DNA from: an uncultured Chloroflexota bacterium
GTDB lineage: Bacteria > Chloroflexota > Anaerolineae > Promineifilales > Promineifilaceae
Length of the DNA stretch: 35,163 bases
Direction: 5' to 3'
Assembly (NCBI GenBank): GCA_900696625.1
Contig: CAADGU010000352.1
Location: 1 to 35,163, forward strand
Position 1 is the first letter of the stretch; each line of letters opens with the position of its first letter. Below are positions 2 to 35,159 of this stretch, in pieces. Both the position numbers and the translations under genes were made by a program. Under the pieces are notes generated by a model. That model saw only the letters and a program-made list of their open reading frames with translations, was not told where the DNA came from and did no database searches.

Positions 2-2632
2 GCCTGGGCCATCGTGCCCCTGGTCTTGTGGGGGTTGCGCCGCTGGCAGGTGGGGCGTACGCGGTTGGGGCTGGCAACGGCCGTCCTCAGCTTCATCCTG
101 CTCATCTTCACCCACGACGTAACCGCTTATGCTTTCCTACCCTTCATGGGTGGTTGGGTGTTGGCAATGGCGTTGGCGGAACGCAGTTGGGCCAGCCTAT
201 GGCGCGGCCTGTTGGCGCTGGCATTGGGGATGGGGGGCAGCGCCTTTTTCTGGCTGCCCGCCATCGCCGAACGCCACTTTGTGCAATTTGACCGGGCCAC
301 AAGCGCCTGGCCTTTCCTCTACTTCAACAACTTTCTTCCCCTCTCCCAACTCTTGGCCCTGCCACGTCAGGCCGACCCGTCGCTGCTCAATGATTGGCCG
401 GAACGGGGGTTGGGCGCATTGCTGGCGCTGCTGGCTGTGGCGGGCACGGCCGTCGCCTGGCGGCGTCTGCCCGGCCATCGCTGGTTGATCGGCTATCTGG
501 CGTTGGCGCTGGTGGGGTATGTGGCGCTGGTGGTGGCCGTGTCACGGCCGTTGTGGGACGCCTTCCCCCTGCTGCAAACCTTCCAATTTCCCTGGCGCTT
601 CCTGGCGCCGGCTACGCTGGCGGCGGCGCTGCTCTGCGGCGGCCTGCTGCCGGGAAACGGTAATCGGTTAGCGGTAATCGGTGAAATACGCCCTTACCGA
701 TTACCGATTACCGATTACGGATTACCTCTTCTCCTCATTATCCTCCTCTCCGCCGCGCACTGGGGTTGGCTGTATCCGCAGCACTGTGCGCCGCCGGACG
801 ATACCAGCCTGGCCGGTATGGTGGCATGGGAAGCGGCAACGGCCACGGTGGGAACCACCGCCAGCGCGGAGCTGCTGCCTACGGCCGTCAGGCAAATGCC
901 TTCGGCTGAAACCGATACGCCGGTGTGGGCGGCGCGGTTGTCGCCGGCCGATTTGCCGGAAGGATCGCAAATCTTCACAGCCGTTTACCATCCCTTGCGC
1001 GCCGAAATAGAAATGGAAACGGCCGTGCCCTTCACCGCCCGCTTTCGCACATTTTATTTTCCCGGCTGGCGCGCCTGGGTAGATGGCGAAGAAGTCCCCA
1101 TCGTTACCGGCGATCCAGATGGGCTGATTACCTTTGCCGTGCCGGACGGCCGTCATACCCTGACCGTTGCTTTTGGCGAGACGCGGTTACGCCTGCTGGC
1201 AAACCTGATTTCGCTGCTCAGTCTGGCCGCACTGGCCTTTATTTTGTGGCGCACCCCGGCTGCACACCGCAAAGCAGAGATACAGACGCCCATACCGGCG
1301 CGTTGGTGGCTGGCGCTGTTGGTGGTGGGGCTGGCGCTGCTGGCAGTCAAATGGCTGCTGGTTGACCCTGGCTATACGCCGCTGCGCCATAGTCACCTGA
1401 GTGAGACGGGGCTGGCGGGTTTTGCCGCGCCTTCCGTCACTTTTGGCAGCCCGGACAACCCGGCACAGATACGGCTGTTGGGGATGGAGGATTGGCCAAC
1501 GGCCGTGCCTGCCGACCAACCGCTGCCCGTCACCCTCTACTGGCAGGCATTGGCCGCGCTGGAAACGGAGTACCGGGTGGGGCTGGTACTGGTAGACGAA
1601 ACGGGCATACGCTGGTCTACCACCGATTTGCGGGACGACCGCTGGTCACGCGCTGCCCCCACCACCACGGCCTGGCCCCTCGACCAGTATGCGCGGACAG
1701 CCCTGCTGGTAGACCTGCTGCCAGGCACACCGCCCGGCGCCTACACGCTGCAATTATCCTTATTTGACCGGGAATCCTTGATGCCCTTAACGGTTTATGC
1801 TCAAGGGCAGCCGCCTGGCCCTTACCTGTCATTAGGGCAAATTGACGTGCAGCCACCGGCGCAAACGGCCGTGCTGGAAAGTGTATTGTTTTCCGATAAC
1901 GCCGTTACGGTTCATGGCGCATTTCTGGACCGTGCCCAGGCCGCTCCGGGTGACACGGCCGTATTGACGCTGTTGTGGTCGTTGCCAAAGGGGGCGGGCA
2001 CGGCCGTTACGCTCTCCCTGGCGGATAACACGGGCACGGTGCGGCACACCTGGCCGGTGGCACTGCCCGCGTATGGGCCAGGCAGGTGGCGCAGCCAGTT
2101 GGCGCTGGCGCTGCCGGTGACACTTCCAGGTGGCCCGTATACCGTGCAGATCAGCACACCGGCGGGGCAAACGGCCGTTTTGCCCGATGTGCTGTCCATC
2201 CAGGAACCAGAGCGCCTGTTGGCGCCGGTGGACATGGCGACGGCCGTGCATGTCTCTCTGGGCACAAATGACCAACCACTGGCGACGCTGGTGGGGTTTA
2301 CGCCAGACGTGGGCTGCCAACAGCCGGGCGGCCCGTGCCAGATCACCCTACTATGGCGCGCCGAAGCGCCCTTTTCCGGCAGCTATCGGGTCTTTGTGCA
2401 TCTGCTCGGTGCGCAGGGGCAGATCGTGGCGCAATCGGATGCTATACCGGCCGGCTGGACGCGCCCCACCACCGGCTGGCTGCCCGGCGAATACATTCTG
2501 GATACCCATACATTGGGAATGCCGTCTGAGGGGACATACACGCTAACAGTCGGCATGTATGACGAAAAAGGAGAACGCCTGCACACCCCAGACCACAATT
2601 CCACCATTGGCTTAGGCACCCTGCCAGAATAA
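2..2632 (+). CDS. Large polytopic membrane protein (PTPS-related/YfhO-like) with beta-sandwich tail, 5' end cut by window
   Basis: The reading frame is open from base 2, and the first possible start (GTG at 14) lies inside a hydrophobic stretch, so the true start is probably upstream of the window. The first ~230 visible residues are multi-pass membrane helices with the THD, FFWLPA and FPWRF pattern of the 6-pyruvoyl-tetrahydropterin-synthase-related/YfhO-type membrane proteins, which are thought to act in cell-surface glycan or lipid modification. A periplasmic segment with a FPGWRAWVDG motif follows, then more helices near residues 390-450. The last ~400 residues hold about three beta-sandwich repeats (LYWQAL, LLWSLP, LLWRAE starts; GxYTL ends). 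The same module ends the proteins at 9672-12134 and 30295-32451. A 70-bp heptamer array sits in-frame at 659-728, and twelve ACGGCCGT copies lie in the gene. Family placement is by pattern; the substrate is unknown. Confidence 0.72.
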   Translation, partial: AWAIVPLVLWGLRRWQVGRTRLGLATAVLSFILLIFTHDVTAYAFLPFMGGWVLAMALAERSWASLWRGLLALALGMGGSAFFWLPAIAERHFVQFDRATSAWPFLYFNNFLPLSQLLALPRQADPSLLNDWPERGLGALLALLAVAGTAVAWRRLPGHRWLIGYLALALVGYVALVVAVSRPLWDAFPLLQTFQFPWRFLAPATLAAALLCGGLLPGNGNRLAVIGEIRPYRLPITDYGLPLLLIILLSAAHWGWLYPQHCAPPDDTSLAGMVAWEAATATVGTTASAELLPTAVRQMPSAETDTPVWAARLSPADLPEGSQIFTAVYHPLRAEIEMETAVPFTARFRTFYFPGWRAWVDGEEVPIVTGDPDGLITFAVPDGRHTLTVAFGETRLRLLANLISLLSLAALAFILWRTPAAHRKAEIQTPIPARWWLALLVVGLALLAVKWLLVDPGYTPLRHSHLSETGLAGFAAPSVTFGSPDNPAQIRLLGMEDWPTAVPADQPLPVTLYWQALAALETEYRVGLVLVDETGIRWSTTDLRDDRWSRAAPTTTAWPLDQYARTALLVDLLPGTPPGAYTLQLSLFDRESLMPLTVYAQGQPPGPYLSLGQIDVQPPAQTAVLESVLFSDNAVTVHGAFLDRAQAAPGDTAVLTLLWSLPKGAGTAVTLSLADNTGTVRHTWPVALPAYGPGRWRSQLALALPVTLPGGPYTVQISTPAGQTAVLPDVLSIQEPERLLAPVDMATAVHVSLGTNDQPLATLVGFTPDVGCQQPGGPCQITLLWRAEAPFSGSYRVFVHLLGAQGQIVAQSDAIPAGWTRPTTGWLPGEYILDTHTLGMPSEGTYTLTVGMYDEKGERLHTPDHNSTIGLGTLPE
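659..728. repeat. Heptanucleotide tandem array folded as an inverted repeat, inside a gene
   Basis: Ten consecutive 7-nt units fill exactly 70 bp. The left part is built on GGTAATC and the right part on its complement phase, TTACCGA, so the two halves can pair into a hairpin. The array is translated within the membrane protein as a stretch containing YRLPITDYG, an unusual polar insertion between two hydrophobic segments. It has the same size and architecture as the array at 13283-13352. Confidence 0.85.
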
Positions 2633-3049
2633 TGGCCCTTGTCGGCACTTTAGTCACCGACGCGCGTAATCGTCTTTCATCAAAGTTTTCCCACAGGTTT
2701 ATTTATAGATTCTTATTGGCAGTAGTAATTAGTAGGGGGTGTTAGTTTGTGGATAAGCAGATTTTGGCCTGATATATAGCCGCATTTTAGCCGGCGTACC
2801 TGTATGTGGCGGCAGTGGGCGGGGAAAAGTCAGGAAAGATTAGCGGGAACTGAAACGGGGGGATGGACACGGCCGTAGCCCCCATTTTTATCCCGCCCCA
2901 CATCTTCTCCGTTGTAACCCCAAAACCCCATATCTGGCGCTGCCGGGAAAAGAGATGACATAAACCGCGCCCACTGTTTTCCACAAAACAAGGGGGTTTT
3001 CCACAACTATTGGGTAGTTATCCACAGTTTTGTGGGCAAAATGCGGGTT
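2633..3049. other. Convergent intergenic region with DnaA-box cluster, candidate replication origin
   Basis: This 417-bp gap between two converging genes holds two perfect DnaA boxes, TTATCCACA on the minus strand at 2748-2756 and on the plus strand at 3018-3026. Two more sites match TTWTNCACA (TTTTCCACA at 2977-2985 and 2997-3005), and a weaker TTTCCCACA lies at 2687-2695. An A/T-rich patch at about 2696-2735 could serve as an unwinding element. One ACGGCCGT lies at 2869. No dnaA, dnaN, gidA or parAB gene is in the window, and converging flanks are not the commonest origin setting. Origin function is therefore an inference from the box cluster alone. Confidence 0.5.
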
Positions 3050-4600
3050 TCACTCCCGTTGGGGCGTGGGTTGCGACGCCTCAGAAAGAGACATATGAGG
3101 GGGTGGGGCTACCCCCTCGTGGGGCGCAGCCGCCAGCCGCGCCAGCTTATGCCGGGCCACCGGTAATGAGGCTGACCGGTACAGGATGGCGGCCATTTCC
3201 CGCACATGGCCGGGCCGCCAGTGGGCGGGTTTCCCGGCCACATCCCGCAGCATCTGCCAGCTTCGCCGCGCCCGAAACTCTTTGTGCAGCGTCACATGCA
3301 GTTGGCGATAAAATGCGGTGGAAAATGGTCCCTGGTACATCATGGCCAGGTCGGCCGAGTCCGTCCAGTTTTGTTTTGCGCCCAATTGCAGTTGCACGTT
3401 TTCGTAAAACCGGGTGCCGGGCAGTGGGTAGGAAACAGACATGCCAATGTCATCTGGCTGGCAATCACGTACCATTTGCAGCGTTTTTTCAATGTCGGCC
3501 CGTGTTTCACCGGGGTAGCCAAACTGCAAAAAGAAACCCACGCGCACCCCGGCGGCGTGAAGCTGCCGGGCGGCTTCATAAATTTGTTCCACAGTGGTGC
3601 CCTTTTCCATGGCGTTCAAAATATGCTGCGCGCCGGATTCTGCCCCCAGCCAGACAATCTCACACCCGGCGCGGCGCAGTGCCTGGACGTTGTCCGGGTC
3701 ACGCACAATCAGGTCGGCACGGCTGAGGCATTTGAAGGGCAGGTGAATCTGGCGTGCTTCCACTTCGGCGGCAAAGTCTGCCCACCAGCCCGGTCTTAGC
3801 CCCATGATGTCGTCGGCAAACCAGATGTGGTCGGGCCGGTAGGTTTCTTGTAACCAGTGCATTTCTGCGGCCACGTTTTGGGGGCTGCGTGAATGGTAGC
3901 GTTGGCCCCAAATGGGTTTGGCGCACCAGTTGCAGTGGTAGGGGCAGCCGCGGGTGGTGACCATGTTCATGGAGTAGTAGCCGTGTTTCTGCTGCCACAT
4001 CTGGCGGTAACGGGGCACATCCACCAAATCCCAGGCGGGGAAGGGTAACGCATCTACATCTTTCAGTGGGGGGCGGCGGGCATTGCGGTGCGGGCCGTCT
4101 GGGGTGTGATGGGCCAGACCGGGGATGGCAGCGCAATGGTCAATTGTCAATTGACCATTATCCATTGACAATTCCTGCAGGAGTTCGGACAGGGTTTCTT
4201 CGCCTTCGCCGAGCAGGACGTAGTGGGCGCCGGTGTGCAGGTAGGCTTCGGCGTGGTCGGTGGCGTCTGAGCCGCAGACGATGGTGATGCAGCCCTGCGC
4301 CTGGGCCTGCTGGATCATGGTGAAGGCGGCTTCGCGCATGTTGAGCAGGCACATTTTGGACAGGTAGTTGAAGTTGTCTTCGTAGATGATGGCGTAGCGA
4401 GGTTGGTGCTGATTGAGTGCCTGCGCCCATTCGTCGGTGGAAGCGGCCAGCATGGCATCGAACAGGGCGACGCTGTAGCCCTGGGCGCGCATGGCGCTGG
4501 CGGCGTACAGTGTGCCCAGGGGGGGGTAGGGCTGCATGGCGGCCCACAGTTTGGGGTCAAAGCGGAGGTAGTAGGATTGGCCGAAAAGGATGTCTGTCAT
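3050..4600 (-). CDS. B12-binding-domain radical SAM protein
   Basis: A 516-residue protein. The N-terminal ~140 residues resemble a cobalamin-binding Rossmann domain (PPLGTLYAASAMRAQGY; later GEGEETL). The radical SAM core follows, with its CxxxCxxC 4Fe-4S motif at C219, C223 and C226 inside TTRGCPYHCNWC. Class B radical SAM enzymes typically perform methylations or rearrangements on lipids, cofactors or secondary metabolites; the substrate cannot be read here. The start at 4600 is chosen because AGGAG lies 7 nt upstream; a longer frame to 4648 would run through a repeat element. Residues near 146-156 (MDNGQLTIDH) are encoded by a 42-bp heptamer array, an in-frame insertion of 14 codons. The gene carries no ACGGCCGT copy over 1.5 kb, unlike its neighbours. 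It is the third gene of a minus-strand set with 5726-7249 and 4757-5692. Confidence 0.85.
   Translation of the reverse strand: MTDILFGQSYYLRFDPKLWAAMQPYPPLGTLYAASAMRAQGYSVALFDAMLAASTDEWAQALNQHQPRYAIIYEDNFNYLSKMCLLNMREAAFTMIQQAQAQGCITIVCGSDATDHAEAYLHTGAHYVLLGEGEETLSELLQELSMDNGQLTIDHCAAIPGLAHHTPDGPHRNARRPPLKDVDALPFPAWDLVDVPRYRQMWQQKHGYYSMNMVTTRGCPYHCNWCAKPIWGQRYHSRSPQNVAAEMHWLQETYRPDHIWFADDIMGLRPGWWADFAAEVEARQIHLPFKCLSRADLIVRDPDNVQALRRAGCEIVWLGAESGAQHILNAMEKGTTVEQIYEAARQLHAAGVRVGFFLQFGYPGETRADIEKTLQMVRDCQPDDIGMSVSYPLPGTRFYENVQLQLGAKQNWTDSADLAMMYQGPFSTAFYRQLHVTLHKEFRARRSWQMLRDVAGKPAHWRPGHVREMAAILYRSASLPVARHKLARLAAAPHEGVAPPPHMSLSEASQPTPQRE
4134..4175. repeat. Heptanucleotide array (CAATTGA type) inside radical SAM gene
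   Basis: Six 7-nt units built on CAATTGA/CCATTGA fill 42 bp. The units near the left contain the palindrome GGTCAATTGTCAATTGACC, so the array can form a hairpin. Its length is a multiple of three, and it adds 14 codons between the B12-binding and radical SAM domains without breaking the frame. Confidence 0.8.
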
Positions 4601-4612
4601 GGGGTACTCCTG

Positions 4613-4765
4613 AGACCCTAAGTAAGCGTCTAAAAATAACTTCCCCATTTGAGATTAGGAGACTAAGAGATTGGCAATCTCCTAATCTCCCAATCTCTCA
4701 ATCTCGGTCGGGGAGGAAGTAATAAATGGACACTTACTAAGGGTTTTCTGAAACCATTAGGGTCT
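4613..4765. repeat. MITE-like inverted-repeat element with octamer array in its centre
   Basis: The ends are AGACCCTA (4613-4620) and its complement TAGGGTCT (4758-4765). Inside them an imperfect second arm pair runs from AGTAAG...AACTTCCCC (4621-4646) to GGGGAGGAAGT...CTTACT (4710-4738). The right arm carries about 20 extra bases. The centre (4651-4706) is seven octamers built on GAGATTGG and its complement, again able to fold back. There is no ORF inside. The right end overlaps the stop codon of the 4757-5692 gene and the left end abuts the ribosome-binding site of the 3050-4600 gene, so the element fills the whole junction. Confidence 0.55.
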
Positions 4766-5692
4766 TGGTCTTCCCTCTAGCCGGGTTTGGTAGGCGGTGA
4801 GGGCGTATTGTTTGTGAGCATCGAAGTGGCCTTTGCACCAGTCGCGGGAGAAGGCGGCGTCTGAGCCGGCCGCTTGTGGTTGAAATTTGCGGATTTTACG
4901 CTGCATTTCCCAGTGATCGAGCCATTGGCCGAGCGGGGTGCGCAGGGGGAGTTCGGCCAGGTGTTGCAGGTGAGGATGTGGCACACGGCCGTCCCCCCTG
5001 ACATGTGGCGCGCCAACTGCGTTTGGCAGAAACGCCGCCGTCCACCTGTTGATTTGCCGCATCTGCTGATAAACCGGCATGCCGGAAAGGGGCGCCATTT
5101 GGGCCACTTCGTGAGCGGTATAGAGGTTATGTTCGGAGAAGAATAAGGCGTTTTCGGCCAGGATGTAGTTGGGGCAGAGAGTATACCCGCGCCGGGCGGC
5201 CAGGCGCACGATCAGAATAGCAAAAGCGCGGTTGAGCCAGACACGGCCGTTGACCGCCACCAACAAATAATCTATATCCCCATTCGGCGCTACGTTGTCT
5301 ACAGCCAGTGACCCGGTGACGGCGACCATGCGGGTGAAGGGCAGGCCGGACAGCAGACGGCCGTATTTTAAGGCCACCGGCCACAACTGGCGGGCGTGTT
5401 CACCCCGCTCCTGGCGGATGGCGACGGTATTTTGGCGTCCGGGCAGGGTGTAGTACGTGTTCACCTGGCAGAGGTGAGTCTCTGCCAGGTGGCCTAGTGA
5501 TGCTTCTACTGCGGGCAGGGAGGCGGTGGTTTCCACCAGGTAGCGGTGAATTTCAACGGCCGTGAGCGGATAGTCAAACACGTCGGCGTAGGCAATGGCC
5601 CGCCAGACGGCCGTTTCCAATGGCGTCAGGTGGGGGGGCAGTGCCTGGGGAGTGGCGGAGGGGCGAGAGTGTGCCGCAGCCGGTGTACTCAT
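4757..5692 (-). CDS. Nucleotidyltransferase-fold protein with N-terminal winged-helix-like region
   Basis: A 311-residue soluble protein. Residues ~24-85 look like a small helix-turn-helix/winged-helix domain (LETAVWRAIAYADVFDYPLT). Residues ~122-146 carry a nucleotidyltransferase-like signature: Gly127-Ser128 followed by Asp139 and Asp141 in NGDIDYLLV, the pattern of pol-beta-fold enzymes. The remainder (~150-311) is helical and unrecognised. The start ATG at 5692 has AAGGA about 9 nt upstream. It begins 33 bp after the radical SAM gene at 5726-7249 and precedes the one at 3050-4600, so the three are probably co-transcribed. The sandwiching implies a shared pathway. The family name is from the motif only; substrate and true activity are unknown, and the protein could be a catalytically altered member. 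Confidence 0.6.
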   Translation of the reverse strand: MSTPAAAHSRPSATPQALPPHLTPLETAVWRAIAYADVFDYPLTAVEIHRYLVETTASLPAVEASLGHLAETHLCQVNTYYTLPGRQNTVAIRQERGEHARQLWPVALKYGRLLSGLPFTRMVAVTGSLAVDNVAPNGDIDYLLVAVNGRVWLNRAFAILIVRLAARRGYTLCPNYILAENALFFSEHNLYTAHEVAQMAPLSGMPVYQQMRQINRWTAAFLPNAVGAPHVRGDGRVPHPHLQHLAELPLRTPLGQWLDHWEMQRKIRKFQPQAAGSDAAFSRDWCKGHFDAHKQYALTAYQTRLEGRPRP

Positions 5693-5725
5693 ACGGTTTG
5701 TTCCTTTGCCATGGGGGATGGGTAT

Positions 5726-7249: not shown

Positions 7250-7303
7250 AGCCCCTCATTTGCCCTGAAACTCAGAGCAAATGACGGGCATTATAACACT
7301 GAC

Positions 7304-7332: not shown

Positions 7333-7338
7333 GGCGGT

Positions 7339-7680: not shown

Positions 7681-7785
7681 AGCAGGCCTTGTGCCTACCC
7701 CATCCTGGGCAACCACAAGCGCCGCCCCTACTTCACATAATCTTTCTGGTGTGTTAAAATTCTGACCAATCAATCGTAACTGTCC

Positions 7786-13279: not shown

Positions 13280-13282
13280 TTG

Positions 13283-13352
13283 GTGATGCGTGATGCGTGA
13301 TGCGTGATGCGTAATCGGTCTTCGTCTCACGCATCACGTGTCACGCATCACG
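13283..13352. repeat. Heptanucleotide array folded as hairpin between epimerase and GT4 genes
   Basis: Ten 7-nt units fill exactly 70 bp: GTGATGC four times on the left, complementary CATCACG-type units on the right, and a short diverged centre. The halves pair. The stop codon of the epimerase gene (13348-13350) lies in the last unit, and the GT4 start codon is 4 bp beyond the first. The architecture matches the array at 659-728. Confidence 0.85.
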
Positions 13353-14298
13353 GGTTTTTCGTCCACCAATCCAGCGACCAGGCTACCGCTTTGGCAATGC
13401 CTTCACGCAGGGGGGTCTGGGGCGTGTAGTCCAGCAGGGCGCGGGCTTTGCCCACGTTGGCGACGTAATGGGTGACTTCGCCCACGCGGGAGGGTTCGAT
13501 GGTTATGCCGGGTGTTTTGCCTAATTCTGCGCCGATGAAACGGGCCATGTCTACCAGGCTGTTGCCCTGCCCGTAGGCCAGGTTGATGGTGTGGTTGCTC
13601 ATTTGCCCACTGACCAATCGCTCAATGCCCCGGTAGACGCCGCTGACGCAGTCGTCAATGTAGGTGAAGTCCAGCACTTTGTCCTGACCATAAATGGTGA
13701 TGGGACGGCCGTGCTGAATTTCGCGGATGAAATAGGGGATGACGCGCAACATACGTTCGATGTCGTTGTCGTAACGGCCGTAGACGTTGCTGAAGCGAAA
13801 TACCAGATATTTCAGCCCATAACATTGGGCATAGGAATAGATGAGCGCCTCGCCGGAGATTTTGCTGGCGGAGTAGGGGCTTTCCGTAAAGGCAAAGTCG
13901 GCGTAGGACTCTTCGGTAATATAGCGGTGGATGTCACCATACACTTCCCGCGAGCTGCTGAAGATGATGGGGATGTCATGCTGGCGGCAAAATTCCAACA
14001 CGTTAAAGGTCATGGTGATGTTTTCCAGGGCGCGGTGGGGCTGCTGCACCAGTTCATGCACTTTGGCATGAGCGGCAAAGTGGACAACGGCGTCCAGGTC
14101 GGGTGGATATTCCACGTTGCCAATGCCCTTGTCAAAATCACGATGGGGGGCGCTGAGGTCTTGCAGCAAGGTTTCAATGGCGGTCGTCCAGGTGTTTGGC
14201 CGTTTGTCTATGCCAAAAACGTAGTGGCCTCTTTCTTGCAAGTAGAGGCCCAGATTGGTGCCAATTTGGCCGCTGGAGCCGGTGATCAAAATGCGCAT
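13348..14298 (-). CDS. NAD-dependent epimerase/dehydratase (extended SDR)
   Basis: A 316-residue protein with the complete extended short-chain dehydrogenase pattern. Gly7-Ser-Ser-Gly-Gln-Ile-Gly13 binds NAD(P). HFAAHAKVHE lies near residue 73, IIFSSSREVYG carries the catalytic Ser near 115, and Tyr142/Lys146 sit in SPYSASK. FRFSNVYGRYD and the C-terminal substrate region follow the UDP-glucose 4-epimerase/dTDP-glucose dehydratase branch, which interconverts nucleotide sugars in the cytoplasm. The ATG at 14298 has GAGGAAA upstream. It starts the minus-strand glycan set, followed by a GT4 glycosyltransferase and a DUF2723 protein. The exact sugar cannot be assigned. Confidence 0.88.
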   Translation of the reverse strand: MRILITGSSGQIGTNLGLYLQERGHYVFGIDKRPNTWTTAIETLLQDLSAPHRDFDKGIGNVEYPPDLDAVVHFAAHAKVHELVQQPHRALENITMTFNVLEFCRQHDIPIIFSSSREVYGDIHRYITEESYADFAFTESPYSASKISGEALIYSYAQCYGLKYLVFRFSNVYGRYDNDIERMLRVIPYFIREIQHGRPITIYGQDKVLDFTYIDDCVSGVYRGIERLVSGQMSNHTINLAYGQGNSLVDMARFIGAELGKTPGITIEPSRVGEVTHYVANVGKARALLDYTPQTPLREGIAKAVAWSLDWWTKNP

Positions 14299-17197: not shown

Positions 17198-17663
17198 CGC
17201 TCCAGGGCACGAGGCGGTATTACGCGCTGAGGTATTGGCCTATTTGCAGGGCCACCAGGTGATGACGTTGGCGACGGTGGGCGCAGAAGGGGTGTGGGCA
17301 ACGGCCGTGTTCTACGTAAACGATGGTTTTGACCTCTACTTCCTCACGGCCGGGCACACCCGGCATGGGCATAATATAGGGGCGCGGGCGGTTATAGCCG
17401 CCGCCATTCAGGAAGATTACCGGGATTGGGATGACATCAAAGGGATTCAGCTAGAAGGTGAGGTAGTGACGCTGGCGGGAGATGAACGGGACACGGCCGT
17501 AAACCTTTACACACAAAAATATCCTTTCATCGCCCAGGCTGACGACACCATGCAGGCGGCCCTGGCAAAAGTGAACTGGTACCGCCTGCGGCCTAAACGT
17601 CTCTATTTCATTGATAACAGGAAGGGGTTAGGCCACCGTGATGAAGTTGAACTGAACTGGTAG
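17190..17663 (+). CDS. Pyridoxamine 5'-phosphate oxidase-family (split-barrel flavin) protein
   Basis: A 157-residue protein of the FMN-binding split-barrel type. It has VMTLATVGAEGVWATAVFYVNDGFDLYFLTA near the N-terminus, HGHNIGARAVIAAAI in the middle, and GIQLEGEVVTL with YTQKYPF later. Such proteins bind FMN, F420 or haem and act as small reductases or oxidases. The GTG start at 17190 overlaps the ubiX stop and has AAGGAG 6 nt upstream, so the two are translationally coupled. The link to prenyl-FMN metabolism is suggestive but not proven. The stop codon lies inside the heptamer array at 17659-17720. Confidence 0.82.
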   Translation: MSDAPGHEAVLRAEVLAYLQGHQVMTLATVGAEGVWATAVFYVNDGFDLYFLTAGHTRHGHNIGARAVIAAAIQEDYRDWDDIKGIQLEGEVVTLAGDERDTAVNLYTQKYPFIAQADDTMQAALAKVNWYRLRPKRLYFIDNRKGLGHRDEVELNW

Positions 17664-17720
17664 CTGGTGGCTAGTTGCTTGTACTAGCCACCAGCCGCCA
17701 GCCACCAACCACTAGCTACC
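17659..17720. repeat. Heptamer array hairpin between converging genes (probable terminator)
   Basis: Three 7-nt units of GGTGGCT type, a 6-nt centre, then five of the complementary AGCCACC type. The halves form a long stem. The first unit contains the TAG stop of the PPOX-fold gene (17661-17663), and the array ends 6 bp before the stop of the converging NYN gene. It can terminate both transcripts. Confidence 0.8.
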
Positions 17721-17726
17721 AAAGAG

Positions 17727-18956
17727 TCAACTTTCCCCTGGCGCATACGTTTGCATTACCACTTTCAGGTAGCGCATATGGCCGGGGGTGTAATAAAGGG
17801 CGAGGGCGGCTTCTTCAAGGTCAAAGGGTTCTGACAATGCCAACATTTCCTGCAAATAGGCCGCGTCACAGCGCATGACGGCTTCCTGAAACGCTTTTTC
17901 GCCTTTGACTTCTAGCAGCAAGGGGGCGGTGGAGAGGGATTTACTTTTCAAGGTACGGATCACCTGCGCCTGCCGCGCCACCAGCAAGATGGCATTGACC
18001 GTGTTTTTGGAGATGTCCTTGTTCTCTTGCTCATATTTCTCGGCCAGAATGTCAATCAGTTCCCGCCAGCGTAATTGGTCGTTCTGTTGTAAATTGACGA
18101 TCATATCTTTGAGGATGGGAAACCGCTGCTCCGCGGGCACAATACGCAGGCGGGCTTTTTTGAGTTGGCTGCGATACCGTTCGTGCAACGGCCGTTGCTG
18201 TTCCTGTTTTTGCGGGCGGCAGACATAAAGCGTGGTATTCACCTGCTTGATTTCCAGGATATGGCTGTACTTTTCCAGGAATTTGCGAAAACTACCCTCA
18301 GCATAGGAACTTTTATCAAAAGCGCCAGTGCTTAATTCTGAGAGTGCCTGGCGCACTACGCTGGCGCGCACCTGGGTTTCTTCGGCCAATAAGCGGTCTA
18401 CGGCCGTTTGTACCAACAGTTCCACCTGGGCATCATTTAATTTGGTCGAAGGCACAATCTCTTCGTAATAAACATACTCATCACATAAACTAACAAAACT
18501 CCTGCTGGCGGTATGCCGCAGGCCCAACCCGATCACATGTTTGCCCCGCTTGCGCAGCGATTGTACCAACGGCGTAAAATCCCGGTCGCCGGTGATGAGG
18601 ACATACGTACTGTACTTATGTCCATCAATCAGCGTATCCATTGTATCTACCACAATTTGCATGTCCGCCAGATTTTTACTGAAGTTGTTGATGCGAATGG
18701 TAGACTGCGTGGAAAAGCCGGCGACGGCCAAATCTTTCATTAACTGTTGGTTCTGCCGCCAATCGCCATAGGAACGTCGTAGGACGATACGGCCGTGTGT
18801 CATCCGTTTGATCTGATCGAGTATGAGATTGATGTCAAAAGTTAAATTGGCTTGTTTGGCCCCGATCACCAGATTGTCTAAATCTAAAAAAACAGCAACA
18901 TCAATCGTGTTTGTGTTACCCGTTGCTGGTTGGCTATCTGTTGACCCGTCGTTCAT
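17727..18956 (-). CDS. NYN-domain (PIN-like) ribonuclease with LOTUS-like region
   Basis: A 409-residue protein. Residues ~18-165 form a NYN/LabA (DUF88) domain with the acidic metal-binding residues in place: Asp25 and Asp27 in FLDLDN, Asp98 in NLADMQIVVD, and Asp124/Asp126 in ITGDRDFTPLV, with GKHVIGLG after them. Residues ~180-250 (LVQTAVDRLLAEETQVRASVVRQAL...FRKFLEKYSHILEI) resemble an OST-HTH/LOTUS RNA-binding helix-turn-helix, the usual partner. The last ~150 residues are helical, with a second, weaker similar region. The family cleaves RNA. The gene stands alone on the minus strand, with no SD visible before ATG 18956. Confidence 0.82.
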   Translation of the reverse strand: MNDGSTDSQPATGNTNTIDVAVFLDLDNLVIGAKQANLTFDINLILDQIKRMTHGRIVLRRSYGDWRQNQQLMKDLAVAGFSTQSTIRINNFSKNLADMQIVVDTMDTLIDGHKYSTYVLITGDRDFTPLVQSLRKRGKHVIGLGLRHTASRSFVSLCDEYVYYEEIVPSTKLNDAQVELLVQTAVDRLLAEETQVRASVVRQALSELSTGAFDKSSYAEGSFRKFLEKYSHILEIKQVNTTLYVCRPQKQEQQRPLHERYRSQLKKARLRIVPAEQRFPILKDMIVNLQQNDQLRWRELIDILAEKYEQENKDISKNTVNAILLVARQAQVIRTLKSKSLSTAPLLLEVKGEKAFQEAVMRCDAAYLQEMLALSEPFDLEEAALALYYTPGHMRYLKVVMQTYAPGES

Positions 18957-24155: not shown

Positions 24156-24164
24156 CCATCATAT

Positions 24165-24273
24165 GTCATTCCGAACCGTTCCCGGTGAGGAATCCTGACG
24201 ACACAGCCAGTCGAAAGGGATTCCTCACTCCGAAGACGAGCCTGCCCTGAGGCATCGAAGGGTTCGGAATGAC
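24165..24273. repeat. Imperfect inverted repeat between peptidase and lipoprotein genes
   Basis: The outer arms GTCATTCCGAACC (24165-24177) and GGTTCGGAATGAC (24261-24273) are perfectly complementary, as are the inner arms GTGAGGAATCC (24185-24195) and GGATTCCTCAC (24218-24228). They enclose a diverged centre. The element fills most of the 131-bp gap and has no ORF. Similar GTCATTCCGA-type repeats are dispersed in many bacterial genomes. Confidence 0.7.
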
Positions 24274-24286
24274 AATTCCGTAGATA

Positions 24287-27916: not shown

Positions 27917-27921
27917 CACAG

Positions 27922-28941: not shown

Positions 28942-28942
28942 C

Positions 28943-30319: not shown

Positions 30320-32451
30320 CCCAGCCAATAAGCGTCGTTGGGCTGGCGCTGTCCATTTACATAAAGTGGCAGGCGGCTGCCGGTAGCCGGGTCATAAAAG
30401 CCGATGTGAAGGGGATAACGGCCGTCTACCCCACCCGCCGGCAGCGCCAGCGTATACGTATCGGTAAATACTTCACCTGCTGCCCAAAATGAAGTGGGAT
30501 AAAAACCATTTCGGGGGGGGCCGTCTGCCTGGGCGATGGGCGGCGCGGCGGGATCACCCAGGTGGACAAATGTGGTGAGCGCCTGGCCCGGCGGCTGCGT
30601 GATATGCCATTGCAACTGAACTTCCAGCGTTTGGGTGGTGGTGAGAACCTGCGCCCAGGTGAGCAGAATGCCATCCCCCCATTGTGCCAGAACCGGTGTG
30701 CTTGTTTCCGGCCATTGCGCCGGTATGACCTTCACCCGGCCGATCTCCACTGCTGTGCCGGCGTCCAGAATGGAGACAAAGAGGCGCGCTTCGGTAGGGC
30801 TGCTCGTGGTTGGTTCCAGGTATACGGAAACATCGTCTACGATGATGGTATCATCCGGCCAAAAGGTGGCCGGGAAAAGGCCATTGCCGTGATAGGTGTG
30901 GTGGCTGCCGACCAGCGCCAGGTCATGCCCTAAAACGGTAATGACTTCGGTGGGTGGGTGCGAGACGTTGCCCGTTTTCCGCCAATAGAGGGTGAATTCT
31001 AAGCGTTCGCCGGGTACGGCCGTTGCCGGTAAAGGCCCCACGGCAACCAGTTCCAAAACGCCGATGGGTGTCTGCACCAGGCGCGCCGTTGGCGGCAAAT
31101 CGGCCATGGTGATGAGCGGTGGCGGCATATACGCTGCCGGGATGACCACCAGGAGGGCATAACACGAGGTGAGCAAAGCGACGATTCCGGCCAGCCAGCC
31201 ATACCGCCACTGGCTCAGCCCATAAGCCAGCGCCAGGGAAATGGGGAGTATCGCCGGAAAGAGCAGCCGCCCCTGCTCCGCCGGGGTTCTGAGTAAAAAT
31301 TGTAGCCAACCGGCTGTGAGCAGCGCTACCCAACCGGCCAGGATGCCCACTAATTCCCATCGGATACGGTCATGGCGGTACACGGTCGTGCCTGTTCCCC
31401 CCAATCCAACCAGGGCAATGCCCCCCCACAACCAATAAACAAATGACGGCGGTTTTATCGTCATCCAGCCAAAATAGGCGACGGCGGATTGAGCGACGGT
31501 GACAAGCTCACGCAATAGCTGCCGGACGGTCAACGTTCGTTCACCACCGGCCAGTTCGATGAAGACAGTCGTCGCCGTGGGGTCGCCATAAAGCGCCCAG
31601 TTACGCCCAAACCACCAACCGGCAAGCAGAAAAGCGGGCAACAAGGTGAGCAAAATAAAGTCGCGCACGGCGGGCCAACGGCCGTACTGCTCCCCATGCC
31701 GCCACCACCACCAGCCCACTGCGCCTGTTCCCCATACCAGCAGCAGCAGCCCGGCCGTTTTGCTGAGCATGGCTGCCCCCAGTGTGATCCCCAACAAAAA
31801 CAGCCGTTTCCGGCTGACGCCGCTTAGCCACAACCGGAGAACTTGCCAGATGACCAGGGAGCTAAAGAGAATGATCAGTGTGTCGTTGCTGATGACGGCA
31901 TGGAGAAAGTTAAACTGGGGCAAAAAGGCGACCAGGGACATAGCCAGCAGCGCCCGGCCAGGCTGCAGCGGCCACAGCAGCCGCCCCGCCTGGTAAATGA
32001 GTGCCAACGTCAGCCCGCCGAGCAAAACAGAGACGAGACGAAGGCGGAAAACGGCCGTTTGCCACACGGCCGTTTCCCTCGTTTCTGGCACATACAAATT
32101 GGGGTTGCCCGTCGTCTGGCCCAATTGGGCGTAGGGGTTTATCTGCAAAGATGGCCCTTCACCCGACCGGCCTAACAGCACCGCCAGCAGCAGGTAATAA
32201 AGCGGCGGTTGCGCCGCCTCCTGACGCGCCAGATCATCCCCCACCCCTAGCAAAGTGGCCGCTACGCCTGGTAGAGTGGTTGCTACCGGCAAACGGCCGT
32301 TGACCGCAATTGCCTGCACCGTATAAAAATGGTGGTTTTCATCCGGCGCTTCAAAAACGGGCGTCACCAGCGCGTAACCGATGGTGAGCAGCCCATAAAG
32401 CAGCAAAACAGCCGCAGCCAAATAGCCAGGACGATGAATGTGCAATATCAT
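30295..32451 (-). CDS. DUF2142/GT-C-like polytopic membrane protein with beta-sandwich tail
   Basis: A 718-residue protein. The first helix is followed by PVFEAPDENHHFY (Asp37-Glu38, His40-His41) and QPPLYYLLLAVL, the pattern of DUF2142/GT39-like integral glycosyltransferases, whose first extracytoplasmic loop carries the catalytic acids. About eleven membrane helices reach residue ~450. The C-terminal ~260 residues are beta-sandwich modules (TLYWRKTG; QLQWHITQPPGQALTTFVHLGD; GRYPLHIGFYDPATGSRL). They match the tails of the proteins at 2-2632 and 9672-12134. ATG 32451 starts a divergent gap of only 39 bp to the gene at 32491. A lipid-linked sugar donor is likely; the acceptor is unknown. Confidence 0.72.
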   Translation of the reverse strand: MILHIHRPGYLAAAVLLLYGLLTIGYALVTPVFEAPDENHHFYTVQAIAVNGRLPVATTLPGVAATLLGVGDDLARQEAAQPPLYYLLLAVLLGRSGEGPSLQINPYAQLGQTTGNPNLYVPETRETAVWQTAVFRLRLVSVLLGGLTLALIYQAGRLLWPLQPGRALLAMSLVAFLPQFNFLHAVISNDTLIILFSSLVIWQVLRLWLSGVSRKRLFLLGITLGAAMLSKTAGLLLLVWGTGAVGWWWWRHGEQYGRWPAVRDFILLTLLPAFLLAGWWFGRNWALYGDPTATTVFIELAGGERTLTVRQLLRELVTVAQSAVAYFGWMTIKPPSFVYWLWGGIALVGLGGTGTTVYRHDRIRWELVGILAGWVALLTAGWLQFLLRTPAEQGRLLFPAILPISLALAYGLSQWRYGWLAGIVALLTSCYALLVVIPAAYMPPPLITMADLPPTARLVQTPIGVLELVAVGPLPATAVPGERLEFTLYWRKTGNVSHPPTEVITVLGHDLALVGSHHTYHGNGLFPATFWPDDTIIVDDVSVYLEPTTSSPTEARLFVSILDAGTAVEIGRVKVIPAQWPETSTPVLAQWGDGILLTWAQVLTTTQTLEVQLQWHITQPPGQALTTFVHLGDPAAPPIAQADGPPRNGFYPTSFWAAGEVFTDTYTLALPAGGVDGRYPLHIGFYDPATGSRLPLYVNGQRQPNDAYWLGQFSATSR

Positions 32452-32490
32452 TTGCCAGCAATTTTCTACCAGGGAAAAGGATATTTCAAC

Positions 32491-33030
32491 ATGATAAAAA
32501 AAACCTTTCGGTTGTTCTTTATTGTTTTACTTGTATTTGGCGCGGTTCAATATGTGTTTAGCTTCTCAACGGGCATTGCCGGTTTTTCCGGCATGAATGG
32601 CGGCAACAGTTGTAATAACTGCCACCACAGTGGGGTTACGCCCGAAGTCAGCATCAGCGGTTCCCAGGTTGTTTTGCCCGGCGACACCCAGATTTACACC
32701 CTGATCATTTCTGGCGGGCAAGAAACCGCCGGTGGTCTCAATGTGGCCGTGACCGATGGCAGTTTACTCTCGTTAAGCGGCGAAACACAGTTAATCAATG
32801 GCGAAATTGCCCACACCACACCGAAATCCGCCAACCAGGATGGGGATGTGGTGTTTAGCTATGCCTGGACGGCACCGGTGATTACCGGAACTGTCACCAT
32901 GTATGGTGCCGGTAATTCCGTGAATGGCAATGGCTCAAACAGTGGCGACGCGGCCGGCCTGACGGCGCTGTCCATTGTGGTGATGGAACTCAATGAGAGG
33001 CTCTATTTGCCCCTGATCCAGCGGGATTGA
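32491..33030 (+). CDS. Exported choice-of-anchor V-like protein with one CxxCH haem site
   Basis: A 179-residue protein. Residues 1-26 are a signal peptide (FRLFFIVLLVFGAVQYVFSFS). GIAGFSGMNGGNSCNNCHHSG follows, with the haem-binding CxxCH at Cys41, Cys44 and His45. The reelin-like beta domain of the choice-of-anchor V family comes next (VVLPGDTQIYTLIISGG; AGGLNVAVTDGSL; HTTPKSANQDGDVVFSYAWTAP). It ends in ERLYLPLIQRD, the [YF]LP motif at the very C-terminus. ATG 32491 has AAGGA upstream; the frame opens earlier at 32329. It is divergent from the DUF2142-like gene. No ACGGCCGT copy is present. Electron transfer at the cell surface is possible. Confidence 0.8.
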   Translation: MIKKTFRLFFIVLLVFGAVQYVFSFSTGIAGFSGMNGGNSCNNCHHSGVTPEVSISGSQVVLPGDTQIYTLIISGGQETAGGLNVAVTDGSLLSLSGETQLINGEIAHTTPKSANQDGDVVFSYAWTAPVITGTVTMYGAGNSVNGNGSNSGDAAGLTALSIVVMELNERLYLPLIQRD

Positions 33031-33036
33031 TGGGTG

Positions 33037-33068
33037 GATTGGTTCAATCTACAAAGATTGAACCAATC
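33037..33068. terminator. Bidirectional hairpin terminator
   Basis: A perfect 14-bp stem (GATTGGTTCAATCT at 33037-33050, complement at 33055-33068) with the 4-nt loop ACAA lies between two converging genes. The right arm touches the stop codon of the gene at 33068-33736. Confidence 0.8.
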
Positions 33069-33736
33069 TAAGGCGCAGGCACACAGGGCGATTCCGGCCA
33101 ATCATCCAACTGCCCCATGCCATTGGTGGAAAGTACCAGGCGATCTAGCCGAAAGCCGGCCGAACGGGCGGAAAGTTCCAGGGTGTGCAATCCGGGCTGC
33201 ACATTGAAAAATTCTGCCGCCGTCAGATGCCCACCGCCGTAATCAAAGTTGAAGTCATACGTCCAGGCATCCACCACATTGGAAAAACCTTTGACCCAGG
33301 GGCGATCATCCAGGCGTACCCAGACATCGTTAAAGTCGGTGGGGCTAAGTGGGTGGGAATTGCGGATGTTGAGCCGGTAGGTACCGGATTTGGTCAAACT
33401 GATGGGGTAGGTTAAAACGGCAATGCCGGGCTGCGCCAGATAGTCGGGGCCGGTCCAGACGTAATAGCCGCTGCCGGTATAACCGGGGAAACCGGTCTGC
33501 AACTGCCACTGGTCTACGGCCGTTACCGATTCAATCTCAATCACCAAGGCGTCGTCCGTTTCCGTGTAGTAACAGATGTCTGGCGGGGAGATGACCAGGG
33601 GGAGAAAGACAGGCGGCGCTTCCTGCCCGGCAGCCCCTGGCTGCGCCAGAAAGAAAAACAGAGCCAGCAGAGCTACCGTTGTAATCCCCGTCCCAACAAA
33701 TAATAATCGTCCTCTCCACAGGTCTGAATTTTCCAT
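33068..33736 (-). CDS. Exported CBM-like (galactose-binding fold) protein
   Basis: A 222-residue protein. The signal peptide spans ~13-35 (LLFVGTGITTVALLALFFFLA). PPVFLPLVISPPD, the [YF]LP motif, comes directly after it. Residues ~55-215 resemble a carbohydrate-binding module of the galactose-binding fold: VIEIESV, GYTGSGYYVWTGPDY, GTYRLNIRNSH, DVWVRLDD, GLHTLELSARSAGFRLDRLVLS. It may bind surface or environmental glycans. The ATG at 33736 has GGAGG about 7 nt upstream; an ATG at 33751 overlaps that site and is not preferred. It converges on the choice-of-anchor V gene. Confidence 0.75.
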   Translation of the reverse strand: MENSDLWRGRLLFVGTGITTVALLALFFFLAQPGAAGQEAPPVFLPLVISPPDICYYTETDDALVIEIESVTAVDQWQLQTGFPGYTGSGYYVWTGPDYLAQPGIAVLTYPISLTKSGTYRLNIRNSHPLSPTDFNDVWVRLDDRPWVKGFSNVVDAWTYDFNFDYGGGHLTAAEFFNVQPGLHTLELSARSAGFRLDRLVLSTNGMGQLDDWPESPCVPAP

Positions 33737-33796
33737 CAACTTCCTCCTCATAACTTCAGGGTGATTTTCAAAAGCACCCTACCACAAATATCGCGC

Positions 33797-34183
33797 TTAG
33801 CGAAGATAAGGTTGTTGGACGTTAAGCTCTTGTATGACACGAAAATGCTTGATGTTGAAAGAAAAAAGTGTCGCAGACTGGTGTATGGTCTGGGCGGCAA
33901 TTAAGCAGTCTGGAATGCTCAAACCGGTCGTGAAACGATATTGTGCCAGTAAGCTATAGGCCGAAACAAAGTCAGCGGCCCCCGGCCTGGTAACAGTAAA
34001 CAGGCCCAAAAACTTTTCGGTGTGTTTTAATTCTGCTTTGCTGCCACACCCTATTACCAGTTCCATGGCAACCACACCGGAAACTTGAAATTGAGTTGAA
34101 GATGCGGTAGAAAGCCAGTTTTGTGCTGGGGGCAGCCCACGTAAACAATCTATGAGAACATCTGTATCCAGAAAAACCGTCAC
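33797..34183 (-). CDS. vapC: VapC-type PIN-domain toxin
   Basis: A 128-residue PIN-domain protein of normal VapC length. The acidic residues of the metal site are seen at Asp6 (VFLDTDVLID), Glu41 (VVAMELVIG) and Asp92 (LSIPDCLIAA), with Asn110 in FNIKHF. VapC toxins are endoribonucleases, often cleaving tRNA or rRNA, held inactive by VapB. It starts with GTG at 34183, overlapping the antitoxin stop (GTGA), the usual arrangement of such pairs. Confidence 0.88.
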   Translation of the reverse strand: MTVFLDTDVLIDCLRGLPPAQNWLSTASSTQFQVSGVVAMELVIGCGSKAELKHTEKFLGLFTVTRPGAADFVSAYSLLAQYRFTTGLSIPDCLIAAQTIHQSATLFSFNIKHFRVIQELNVQQPYLR

Positions 34184-34428
34184 AGTGATCTGCTCCAGGC
34201 TTGCTGACGCAACTGACGAGCATAGTCATTGGTAACGTCCGTACGATCTTTCCACATGCCGAAGAATTCGGAATTCAGTAGATCACCTAGTGTGTTCAAT
34301 GTTTTTTGTTCAGGCAACATTAAAAAAATCAAGAACTTGGTAGGTCCTGCCGGAACATCATCGGGTAATTTAACGTAAATTTCCCGCTCCTTTGTTGTTT
34401 CAGTCGTGAACTCAAGTGCTTTTATCAT
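34180..34428 (-). CDS. VapB-type antitoxin partner
   Basis: An 82-residue protein paired with the PIN toxin. The N-terminus (MIKALEFTTETTKEREIYVKLPDDV) is beta-strand-like. The C-terminal half (SEFFGMWKDRTDVTNDYARQLRQQAW) has the FGMWKDR...YARxLR pattern common in small partners of PIN toxins. ATG 34428 is chosen because GGAGG lies 5 nt upstream. Antitoxin first, toxin second, with a 4-bp overlap, is typical. The DNA-binding type is unclear. Confidence 0.75.
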   Translation of the reverse strand: MIKALEFTTETTKEREIYVKLPDDVPAGPTKFLIFLMLPEQKTLNTLGDLLNSEFFGMWKDRTDVTNDYARQLRQQAWSRSL

Positions 34429-34466
34429 CATATCCTCCGTCAGCCCATCACACACGTTTCATAATA

Positions 34467-35159
34467 TCAGGTTCTATGCAGAGCCTTGATGCCATTTGCC
34501 GTAGCCAGCACTACGTCCGTGGCCAGGCCGAGAAAGAGGCCGTGTTCGACGATGCCGGGCTGTTGGCGGATGGATTGCGCCAACGCCGCCGGGTTAGGGA
34601 TGCCGTCGAAATGGCAGTCGAGGATGTAATTGTTTTCGTCGGTGAGGTAGGGTTGGCCGTCTGGCCCTTGCCGTTTTTCCACGCGCGCGCCTAGAGAGAT
34701 CAGATAGTCGTGGCACGGCCGTACCGCAAACTGTACCACCTCCACCGGCACCGGCGCGCGCGTGCCCAACAAGGCCACCTGCTTACGCTCATCGGCCACA
34801 ATGACCATCCGTTTGGAAGCGGTCGCCACAATTTTTTCGCGCAGCAGCGCCCCGCCGAGTCCCTTGATCAGGTTAAAGTTTGGGTCAATCTCGTCTGCGC
34901 CATCAATGGTTACATCAATGTGAGCATAATCGTCCAGTGTGCCCAGAGGAATGCCCCACCGTCGCGCTTCTTGGGCTGTAGCCTCCGAAGTCGGCACGCC
35001 TACAATGCCCGGCAGCGCCCCCGCCTGCCATAGTTGGCCGATCTTGCGCGTGGCGTGTACGGCCGTGCTGCCCGTACCCAGGCCGATGATCATTCCTGGC
35101 TTCACCGCCAGCATCACCGCCTTCTCCCCAGCCTGTTGTTTTAATGTTTCAATGTCCAT
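34467..35159 (-). CDS. rpiA: Ribose-5-phosphate isomerase A
   Basis: A 230-residue protein, the full RpiA length. It interconverts ribose-5-phosphate and ribulose-5-phosphate in the cytoplasmic pentose phosphate pathway. Signature pieces are GLGTGST at residues 26-32, the catalytic DGADEID at 86-92, KGLGGALLREKI at 99-110 and GLATDVVLA near the end. ATG 35159 lies 4 bp from the window edge, so the gene is complete but its ribosome-binding site is not visible. It ends 38 bp before the antitoxin start. Confidence 0.95.
   Translation of the reverse strand: MDIETLKQQAGEKAVMLAVKPGMIIGLGTGSTAVHATRKIGQLWQAGALPGIVGVPTSEATAQEARRWGIPLGTLDDYAHIDVTIDGADEIDPNFNLIKGLGGALLREKIVATASKRMVIVADERKQVALLGTRAPVPVEVVQFAVRPCHDYLISLGARVEKRQGPDGQPYLTDENNYILDCHFDGIPNPAALAQSIRQQPGIVEHGLFLGLATDVVLATANGIKALHRT

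What the first reader, a model, noticed from the sequence alone, without database searches (positions are those of the whole stretch)
77..35066. About 89 copies of the palindrome ACGGCCGT: a HIP1-like genome signature
Seen: about 89 copies by hand count against roughly one expected at ~57% GC, nearly all in coding sequence. Most CGGCCG hexamers carry the flanking A/T, so the octamer itself is kept. In genes it is read mostly Thr-Ala-Val (ten of twelve in the first gene) or x-Gly-Arg, rarely Arg-Pro, so frame is filtered by protein tolerance. Known: cyanobacterial HIP1 behaves this way and is linked to methylation and repair. Inference: a methylated or protein-bound site spread by gene conversion, mutational bias or selection. 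I know of no description of this octamer in that role.
Basis: partly seen in the sequence, partly recalled or inferred. Interest (0 to 1): 0.88.

Follow-up and report, generated by a model that had tools for sequence, protein, structure and literature searches.

The report
Dialectal DNA watermark ACGGCCGT in Chloroflexota
One family of uncultured bacteria carries the same eight-letter DNA word about every 500 bases, kept in place so firmly that it bends their protein sequences, with spelling variants between genera and copies in viruses too, although no matching DNA-methylating enzyme was found consistently.

Summary
It is a highly iterated palindrome (HIP) like cyanobacterial HIP1, but in an uncultured Chloroflexota family: 29 of 52 family genomes hold over 2,800 copies, none of 24 from other families does. 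The family shows dialects of one strict core, CGGCCG: A..T, T..A, G..C, free flanks; one genome switched to TGCCGGCA. Sites are held in place between species far better than similar octamers, fourfold-degenerate bases included. One-mismatch octamers stay near background, so reading of the core is all-or-none. Proteins carry the imprint: Thr-Ala-Val is 7.9-fold over-represented. Viral contigs, two with phage packaging or head genes, carry the word too. Abundance and loss rate fit one weak fixation-biased force per site (S about 4.2-4.7), not a gain-only ratchet. Methylation is not supported as the general cause: 12 of 24 copy-rich genomes lack m5C methylases, and one free-flank genome lacks all four methylase families searched. 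The reader protein is unknown; methylase-free modification such as phosphorothioation was not tested.

The parts
77..35066 (.). 89 copies of the palindrome ACGGCCGT (8 bp each). Starts: 77, 446, 544, 881, 1019, 1146, 1499, 1865, 1955, 2000, 2171, 2240, 2869, 4985, 5243, 5357, 5556, 5607, 5932, 6543, 6563, 6752, 6851, 7094, 7378, 7606, 9263, 9750, 10065, 10459, 10580, 10737, 10957, 11510, 11746, 12291, 12513, 13142, 13705, 13774, 14603, 14762, 14890, 15275, 15836, 16379, 16479, 17301, 17493, 18188, 18400, 18789, 20007, 20253, 20658, 21156, 21297, 22067, 22331, 22388, 22418, 22511, 22729, 22899, 23157, 23572, 23803, 24045, 24594, 24642, 25163, 25919, 26045, 26108, 26490, 27651, 28186, 28618, 28994, 30084, 30418, 31016, 31678, 32051, 32066, 32293, 33516, 34715, 35059
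   Evidence: Direct count; null models
14..2632 (+). Example gene (ORF): 12 sites, 10 of them read Thr-Ala-Val
446..453 (.). Example site: ACGGCCGT in G000, G001, G003 and G004, GCAATCGT in G002
4069..4076 (.). Position without the site here but with it in G002 and G004 (gain in that branch, or loss here)
2877..4984 (.). Longest site-free gap in the window; covers the ORF at 3050-4648

Best explanation
Shown: a highly iterated palindrome of an uncultured Chloroflexota family, with a strict CGGCCG core and lineage-specific outer bases, held in place by a force that acts on DNA and is all-or-none for the core. Its abundance (about 65-110 fold) and its loss rate (0.06-0.10 of control) agree roughly with one weak fixation-biased force per intact site, S about 4.2-4.7. 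Some viral contigs carry it too. It occurs in genomes without a convincing CGGCCG-specific methylase of the common classes. Inferred: a host-encoded, symmetric (dimeric), restriction-enzyme-like or repressor-like protein reads CGGCCG plus outer bases on any DNA in the cell, and an intact site makes that DNA slightly more likely to be kept, most likely because the site is an entry or nicking point for repair or recombination, so that intact alleles are favoured by biased repair or conversion or by weak selection. Dialects arise when that protein gains, changes or loses contacts to the outer base pairs. The protein and the biochemical step are not identified.
For: Abundance and one-mismatch test. 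In-place conservation with identity falling to background at the first flanking base; 48 of 75 positions present in all five species against 9.2% of other octamers. Fourfold sites 98.2% against 73.8% identical in G000/G003 and 94.3% against 59.9% in G000/G004. Loss rate against prediction. Dialect map of 41 sampled genomes with a second shell, AACGGCCGTT, W-TCGGCCGA-W, Y-GCGGCCGC-R. Dialect-matched tripeptides: Thr-Ala-Val 428 against 54, Ser-Ala-Glu 46 against 8.7, Ala-Ala-Ala 58 against 13. Near-random spacing, CV 0.95. Viral contigs with portal, terminase or head genes carrying sites. Genomes with the core but without methylase candidates.
Against: No reader protein was found. Selection and biased conversion cannot be separated with these data. 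The S estimate assumes equilibrium; parsimony by eye gives about 17 losses and 10 gains, i.e. perhaps slight net loss, and measured loss (0.063-0.103) is a little above prediction (0.043-0.065). Gained positions align to octamers with 3-5 differences more often than a one-step path suggests. Outer-base one-mismatch octamers are raised 3-4 fold in other genera and viral contigs, so the outer base is softer than all-or-none. Enrichment is weaker in g6 (9 fold), g4 (2 fold) and for TGCCGGCA in G016 (20 fold). Ala-Ala-Ala is also 3.1 fold in G016, so that tripeptide is a less specific imprint. The link between viral contigs and these hosts rests on the word alone.
Confidence: 0.5

Rival explanations
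1. Methylation-coupled HIP as proposed for cyanobacteria: a methylase recognising GGCC or CGGCCG marks the sites and methyl-directed mismatch repair ratchets them up.
For: Elhai 2015 (PMC4390886, parts read) reports at least one putative methylase able to act on the word in every cyanobacterial genome with a highly over-represented word. Outer-position bias of one-mismatch octamers resembles his HIP1 pattern. A D12 methylase domain is found in 42 of 52 family genomes, and he notes that D12 can hold a GGCC enzyme.
Against: 12 of 24 genomes with at least 2,900 ACGGCCGT among the 35 family genomes lack PF00145. G002 (14,867 copies) has one D12, PF02384 matches and two marginal PF01555 hits (E 4.6e-4 at best); G010 (CGGCCG O/E 10.6) has no match to PF00145, PF01555, PF02086 or PF02384. 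The G002 D12 is nearest the DpnII GATC methylase and TIGR00571 dam, and D12 also occurs in genomes without a clear HIP (G014, G032, G026). G003 (15,176 copies) has no D12 better than E 2.7e-4. GCGGCCGC has no adenine. A gain-only ratchet predicts loss at the control rate; 0.06-0.10 of it is seen, although a ratchet that also blocks losses is not excluded by that.
Confidence: 0.13
2. A methylase-free modification, such as phosphorothioation (from memory, the Streptomyces dnd system has a GGCC core), marks the sites and protects or directs repair of DNA.
For: Fits methylase independence and viral sharing; core GGCC (recalled, no call).
Against: Such systems are usually patchy (recalled), whereas the HIP is conserved across a genus.
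Confidence: 0.1
3. DNA uptake sequence: competent cells prefer DNA with the word, so transformation spreads it (molecular drive).
For: Neisserial DUS also has a core with dialects (PMC3630211, abstract and passages), and drive would mimic selection, as seen.
Against: DUS is not palindromic (recalled; the 10-mer quoted is not). Phage structural genes carry the word, where uptake gives no clear benefit. Competence genes were not examined.
Confidence: 0.12
4. Chi-like or self-recognition octamer that spares self DNA from a helicase-nuclease; phages copy it to survive.
For: GC-rich, all-or-none core, variants between lineages, shared by viral contigs.
Against: Chi is asymmetric (recalled). In g1 the PDDEXK_1 domain occurs only in frames of 185-298 aa (none at all in G001), none of AddAB or RecB size; frames of 949 aa or more are in G025, G059, G073, G074, G075, G006, G022 and with weak scores in G018 and G033. 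A diverged nuclease could be missed.
Confidence: 0.1
5. Composition, codon or protein bias: Thr-Ala-Val is common and its codons happen to spell the word.
For: 46 of 89 sites are Thr-Ala-Val.
Against: Codon shuffle mean 9.8 against 87; two main frames; tripeptide imprint follows the local dialect; fourfold sites constrained.
Confidence: 0.01

Closest known systems
HIP1 (GCGATCGC) and alternate HIPs of cyanobacteria (Elhai 2015, PMC4390886)
   Same: GC-rich palindromic word; most HIP1 genomes have 300-2700 per Mb and O/E 55-228; palindromic extensions; relatives with replaced words; outer positions softest.
   Different: Other phylum, other core; one core with exchangeable outer pairs across genera; a matching methylase is not consistently found; viral contigs carry it (the word 'phage' does not occur in that paper's main text).
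DNA uptake sequences of Neisseriaceae and their dialects (PMC3630211)
   Same: Thousands of copies, constant core with lineage dialects.
   Different: Palindrome here; hexameric core; present in phage genes; uptake not tested.
Recognition sites of EagI (CGGCCG) and NotI (GCGGCCGC) restriction enzymes (site names recalled)
   Same: The free-flank and G..C dialects are exactly these sites; all-or-none reading.
   Different: Sites are enriched, not avoided; the NotI-family domain passes its cut-off in 4 of 52 genomes only.
Chi sites of RecBCD or AddAB (recalled)
   Same: GC-rich octamer in E. coli, species variants.
   Different: Chi is asymmetric; AddAB or RecB-size nuclease not found in g1 by its PDDEXK_1 domain.

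Membership tests
Highly iterated palindrome (HIP class, Elhai 2015) | Palindromic, GC-rich oligomer grossly over-represented genome-wide | tested here: met
   13,708 against 192 control; over base composition 62-143 fold in samples of 23 of 24 ACGGCCGT genomes, 24 fold in G060
Highly iterated palindrome (HIP class, Elhai 2015) | About 300-2700 copies per Mb | tested here: met
   13,708 in 6.949 Mb, i.e. about 1,970 per Mb in G000
Highly iterated palindrome (HIP class, Elhai 2015) | Replacement by other palindromes in relatives | tested here: met
   TCGGCCGA, GCGGCCGC, CGGCCG, TGCCGGCA
Highly iterated palindrome (HIP class, Elhai 2015) | A methylase that can recognise part of the word is present (reported correlate) | tested here: not met
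   G010 has no match to four methylase families; G002 has no convincing PF00145 or PF01555. MAG gaps possible
HIP1 proper | Sequence GCGATCGC in cyanobacteria | tested here: not met
   Other sequence; congeneric records are titled Chloroflexi or Anaerolineae; CGATCG is avoided, 5 against 40 expected outside sites
DNA uptake sequence | Core plus lineage dialects | tested here: met
DNA uptake sequence | Enhances uptake by competent cells | not testable with these tools
   Needs a transformation assay; competence genes were not searched
Chi site | Asymmetric sequence (recalled) read by AddAB or RecBCD | tested here: not met
   Palindrome; no AddAB or RecB-size PDDEXK_1 frame in g1
NotI/EagI-type restriction system | Cognate endonuclease in the genome | tested here: not met
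   PF12183 over cut-off in 4 of 52, none in g1; an EagI-specific model was not searched

The most novel reading that the evidence does not exclude
A methylase-independent DNA watermark: an unknown dimeric host protein reads CGGCCG plus dialect bases and gives every chromosome or phage segment with an intact site a weak, constant fixation advantage, strong enough to rewrite the proteome (Thr-Ala-Val, Ser-Ala-Glu or Ala-Ala-Ala by dialect). Dialects switch by changing outer contacts on conserved core positions.
Probability: 0.45. Interest if true: 0.93.

Novelty: new variant of a known kind. Interest (0 to 1): 0.86.

Why it matters
The role of HIP1 has been open since the 1990s. A second phylum with the same phenomenon, natural switches of the outer base within one family, and copy-rich genomes without a convincing matching methylase separate the word from methylation and make the question testable: find the protein whose DNA contacts vary with the dialect. 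It also gives a measured case of a DNA-level force bending protein sequence on a large scale, and a word that may help link phages to these uncultured hosts.

Tried and rejected
Rejected: chance, composition and codon bias; insertion of copies (few gaps at sites); a spacing set-point (near-random gaps; density also differs between free-flank G022 at 5.3 per kb and the octamer genomes); NotI-family enzyme as universal reader; conserved m5C methylase; Dam-type D12 methylase as the marker; AddAB/RecBCD Chi in g1; Thr-Ala-Val as protein motif.

Led nowhere: text search for the octamer returned 196 papers; only 20 were listed, and by title and abstract start none of these concerns a genome signature; the other 176 were not seen. 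One plasmid tblastn of a window epimerase was uninformative. Cross-dialect alignment G059/G022 covers about 5 kb: 4 of 7 distinct G059 cores are also CGGCCG in G022, but only those 4 of about 31 distinct G022 cores are CGGCCG in G059 (counted by eye with duplicate rows merged). Delaye and Moya 2011 is not held.

Dropped rows: 4 of 22 D12 proteins (G029, G071, G024, G031) came out in a wrong frame and were ignored; the rest were compared by eye, no tree was built. In one search, 5 of 80 positions, present only in G005, were left out of the 48 of 75. Dialect classes rest on about 5-88 kb per genome (41 of 52 family genomes), not on whole genomes. One search leaves one-residue tripeptides such as Ala-Ala-Ala out of its ranking.
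Full report
WHAT IS THERE. The window holds exactly 89 ACGGCCGT. Order 0-3 models with sites masked expect 0.7-1.0; an unmasked order-6 model expects 78, because the sites fill its heptamer counts. The window is G000:C352 of a 6.95 Mb, 641-contig genome with 13,708 copies and 192 of the reversed control. I suspect the family is Promineifilaceae (recalled, not tested).

RANGE. All six genomes of the genus have 10,726-15,176 copies. In 52 genomes of the family, 29 have more than 2,800, the other 23 have 14-1,727. The 24 genomes of other families have 0-287. For the core CGGCCG against its reverse GCCGGC, G000 has 19,896 against 5,031; among 400 genomes of the phylum (three of this family) none outside comes near in both number and ratio, read by eye; the highest ratio outside that I saw is G355, 871 against 259.

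DIALECTS. Sampling 5-88 kb from each of 41 family genomes (408 kb for the genus in all) shows one core with exchangeable outer pairs. A..T in genera g1, g2, g3, g5, g7, g9, g11, g13, g14, g16, g17, g19 and g20; T..A in G012 and G059; G..C in G019; free flanks in g6 and G022, weakly in g4 and g21; no clear enrichment in G014, G032 and G026 (core O/E 1.6-2.2). G016 uses TGCCGGCA (3,665 copies) and avoids CGGCCG (3 in 34 kb). G022 and G059 share a genus, so the dialect can change within one. A second shell exists: AACGGCCGTT in g7 (84-97% A), W-TCGGCCGA-W in G012 and G059, Y-GCGGCCGC-R in G019. Between G059 and G022, 4 of 7 distinct G059 cores are also CGGCCG in G022 although flanks differ; most of the about 31 G022 cores there are not shared (about 5 kb).

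ALL-OR-NONE. Over 408 kb of the genus, 900 sites stand against 10-13 expected from site-masked Markov models; the 24 one-mismatch octamers together 614 against 476-501, with an excess mainly at the outer position; two-mismatch octamers 3,912 against 4,669-4,762. The same holds for G012 (47 fold; one-mismatch 0.87), G019 (59; 0.86), G059 (81; 1.34) and for the hexamer in G022 (73; 0.99). In 18 sampled stretches of other ACGGCCGT genera the fold is 65, with outer-position mismatches 3.1 times and core-position mismatches 0.5-0.8 times expectation. Weaker cases: G016 20 fold, g6 9 fold, g4 2 fold.

HELD IN PLACE. Pairwise alignments within the genus, sites and control octamers both counted from either side: sites conserved 94-95% where controls of like composition are 40-55% conserved, 83-86% where controls are 17-24%, 64-70% where controls are 8-10%; identity falls to background at the first flanking base. 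Counting each position once, 78 of 87 are conserved between G000 and G003. Of 75 positions alignable in five species, 48 hold the word in all five; 2,010 of 21,750 other octamers are identical in all five. Fourfold-degenerate bases inside sites are 98.2% identical against 73.8% outside for G003, 97.3 against 81.0 for G001, 91.5 against 60.2 for G002, 94.3 against 59.9 for G004 and 82.1 against 48.5 for G005. So the force acts on DNA.

PROTEOME. In 275 ORFs of the genus Thr-Ala-Val occurs 428 times against 54 expected (7.9 fold, the most enriched of mixed tripeptides counted 10 or more times). In T..A genomes Ser-Ala-Glu is top (46 against 8.7); in G019 Ala-Ala-Ala is 58 against 13, but it is also 39 against 12.6 in G016, so it is less specific; in genomes without a clear HIP Thr-Ala-Val is 14 against 10.

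KIND OF FORCE. If abundance is e^S times background, 65-110 fold gives S 4.2-4.7. A fixation bias of that size predicts loss at 0.043-0.065 of the neutral rate. Measured against control octamers in seven pairs: 0.063-0.103, bootstrap intervals within 0.03-0.15. A gain-only ratchet predicts 1.0; pure suppression of loss predicts 0.009-0.015. This assumes equilibrium and treats half of the changed positions as losses. Selection and biased conversion remain indistinguishable. Gaps between sites are nearly random (758 gaps, mean 434, CV 0.95, mild deficit under 50 bp), so sites act independently.

VIRAL CONTIGS. Their median density is only 0.37 per kb, so most are probably chance, but 16 loci from 14 records have six or more copies at O/E 60 or more (the scan selects for close pairs, which inflates short loci). 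Of 20 proteins from six contigs scanned against PHROGs, clear packaging or head genes were in two contigs: in L278 the portal, head-protease and terminase-like frames hold 4, 2 and 5 sites, in L262 the terminase frame holds 1 and its neighbour 4. L209 has a helicase-loader-like gene; L226 and L264 could be phage, phage-plasmid or other elements. That these viruses infect this family is inferred from the word alone. A control scan with TCGGCCGA gave 0 of 79 loci at that threshold.

METHYLASES. Of the 24 genomes with at least 2,900 copies among the 35 family genomes, 12 have no PF00145. G002 has two marginal PF01555 hits, one D12 and PF02384 matches. G010 has no match to any of the four families. 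G024 has no PF00145 or PF02384, one D12 and four PF01555 matches, the best E 9.5e-10. The G002 D12 is nearest the DpnII GATC methylase and fits TIGR00571 dam. D12 is also in G014, G032 and G026, which lack a clear HIP. These MAGs are 94-100% complete (G002 97, G010 94, G024 100) with a few per cent contamination, so single absences may be assembly gaps; the pattern over several is stronger. No reader was found.

KNOWN WORK. Elhai 2015 (PMC4390886; I read the abstract, sections 2.1-2.5, most of 2.6, 3.1-3.4 and the start of 3.5) defines HIPs and reports a putative methylase for every cyanobacterial HIP; his model needs one. DUS dialects (PMC3630211; abstract and passages only) are a partial parallel. 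Searches for HIPs outside cyanobacteria or for this word showed none among the papers listed (for only 20 of 196 were listed); the library lacks most subscription papers, and I recall a 2018 selection study of HIP1 that I could not see.

VERDICT. It is a HIP by pattern, a new variant because of its host phylum, its dialects on one core, its presence in viral contigs and its occurrence without the methylases searched. How it works is open; a dimeric reader linked to repair or recombination is my leading inference.

Noticed in passing
L200 (G000:C30), L202 (G000:C314) and methylase genes of g1: Methylase genes are poor in the word (4 in 12.6 kb over nine stretches chosen around the matches); contig C30 has 0 in 5.5 kb and the C314 stretch 1 in 8.9 kb, as if recently acquired.
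   Followed up: partly
G016 (L065, L066, L151): A family member with TGCCGGCA as its iterated palindrome and strong avoidance of CGGCCG: a natural switch worth full sequencing.
   Followed up: partly
genus g1 sequences, 408 kb: Outside the word many 6-bp palindromes are strongly avoided (ACGCGT 0.09, CGATCG 0.12 of expectation) while CGGCCG is at 0.83.
   Followed up: no
window 17648-17730, 24160-24280, 13300-13362: Intergenic or gene-edge stretches, two of them with inverted repeats, match many places in G000 and congeners in the BLAST listing: dispersed repeat families (sequences).
   Followed up: no
L169, L170 (G034, G033): Strong NotI-family endonuclease genes in two genomes that carry over 8,000 ACGGCCGT; their protecting methylases were not examined.
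   Followed up: no
window 4069, 20594, 35096 and others: Positions that gained the word often align to octamers with 3-5 differences, while lost positions mostly differ by one base.
   Followed up: partly
L226 and L285 (IMGVR_UViG_3300033417_000002): A 100 kb viral contig record whose held parts carry 2.8-3.7 sites per kb, more than the 2.2-2.6 per kb of the ACGGCCGT-rich genus stretches measured; ParA, anti-repressor and FtsK-like genes.
   Followed up: partly
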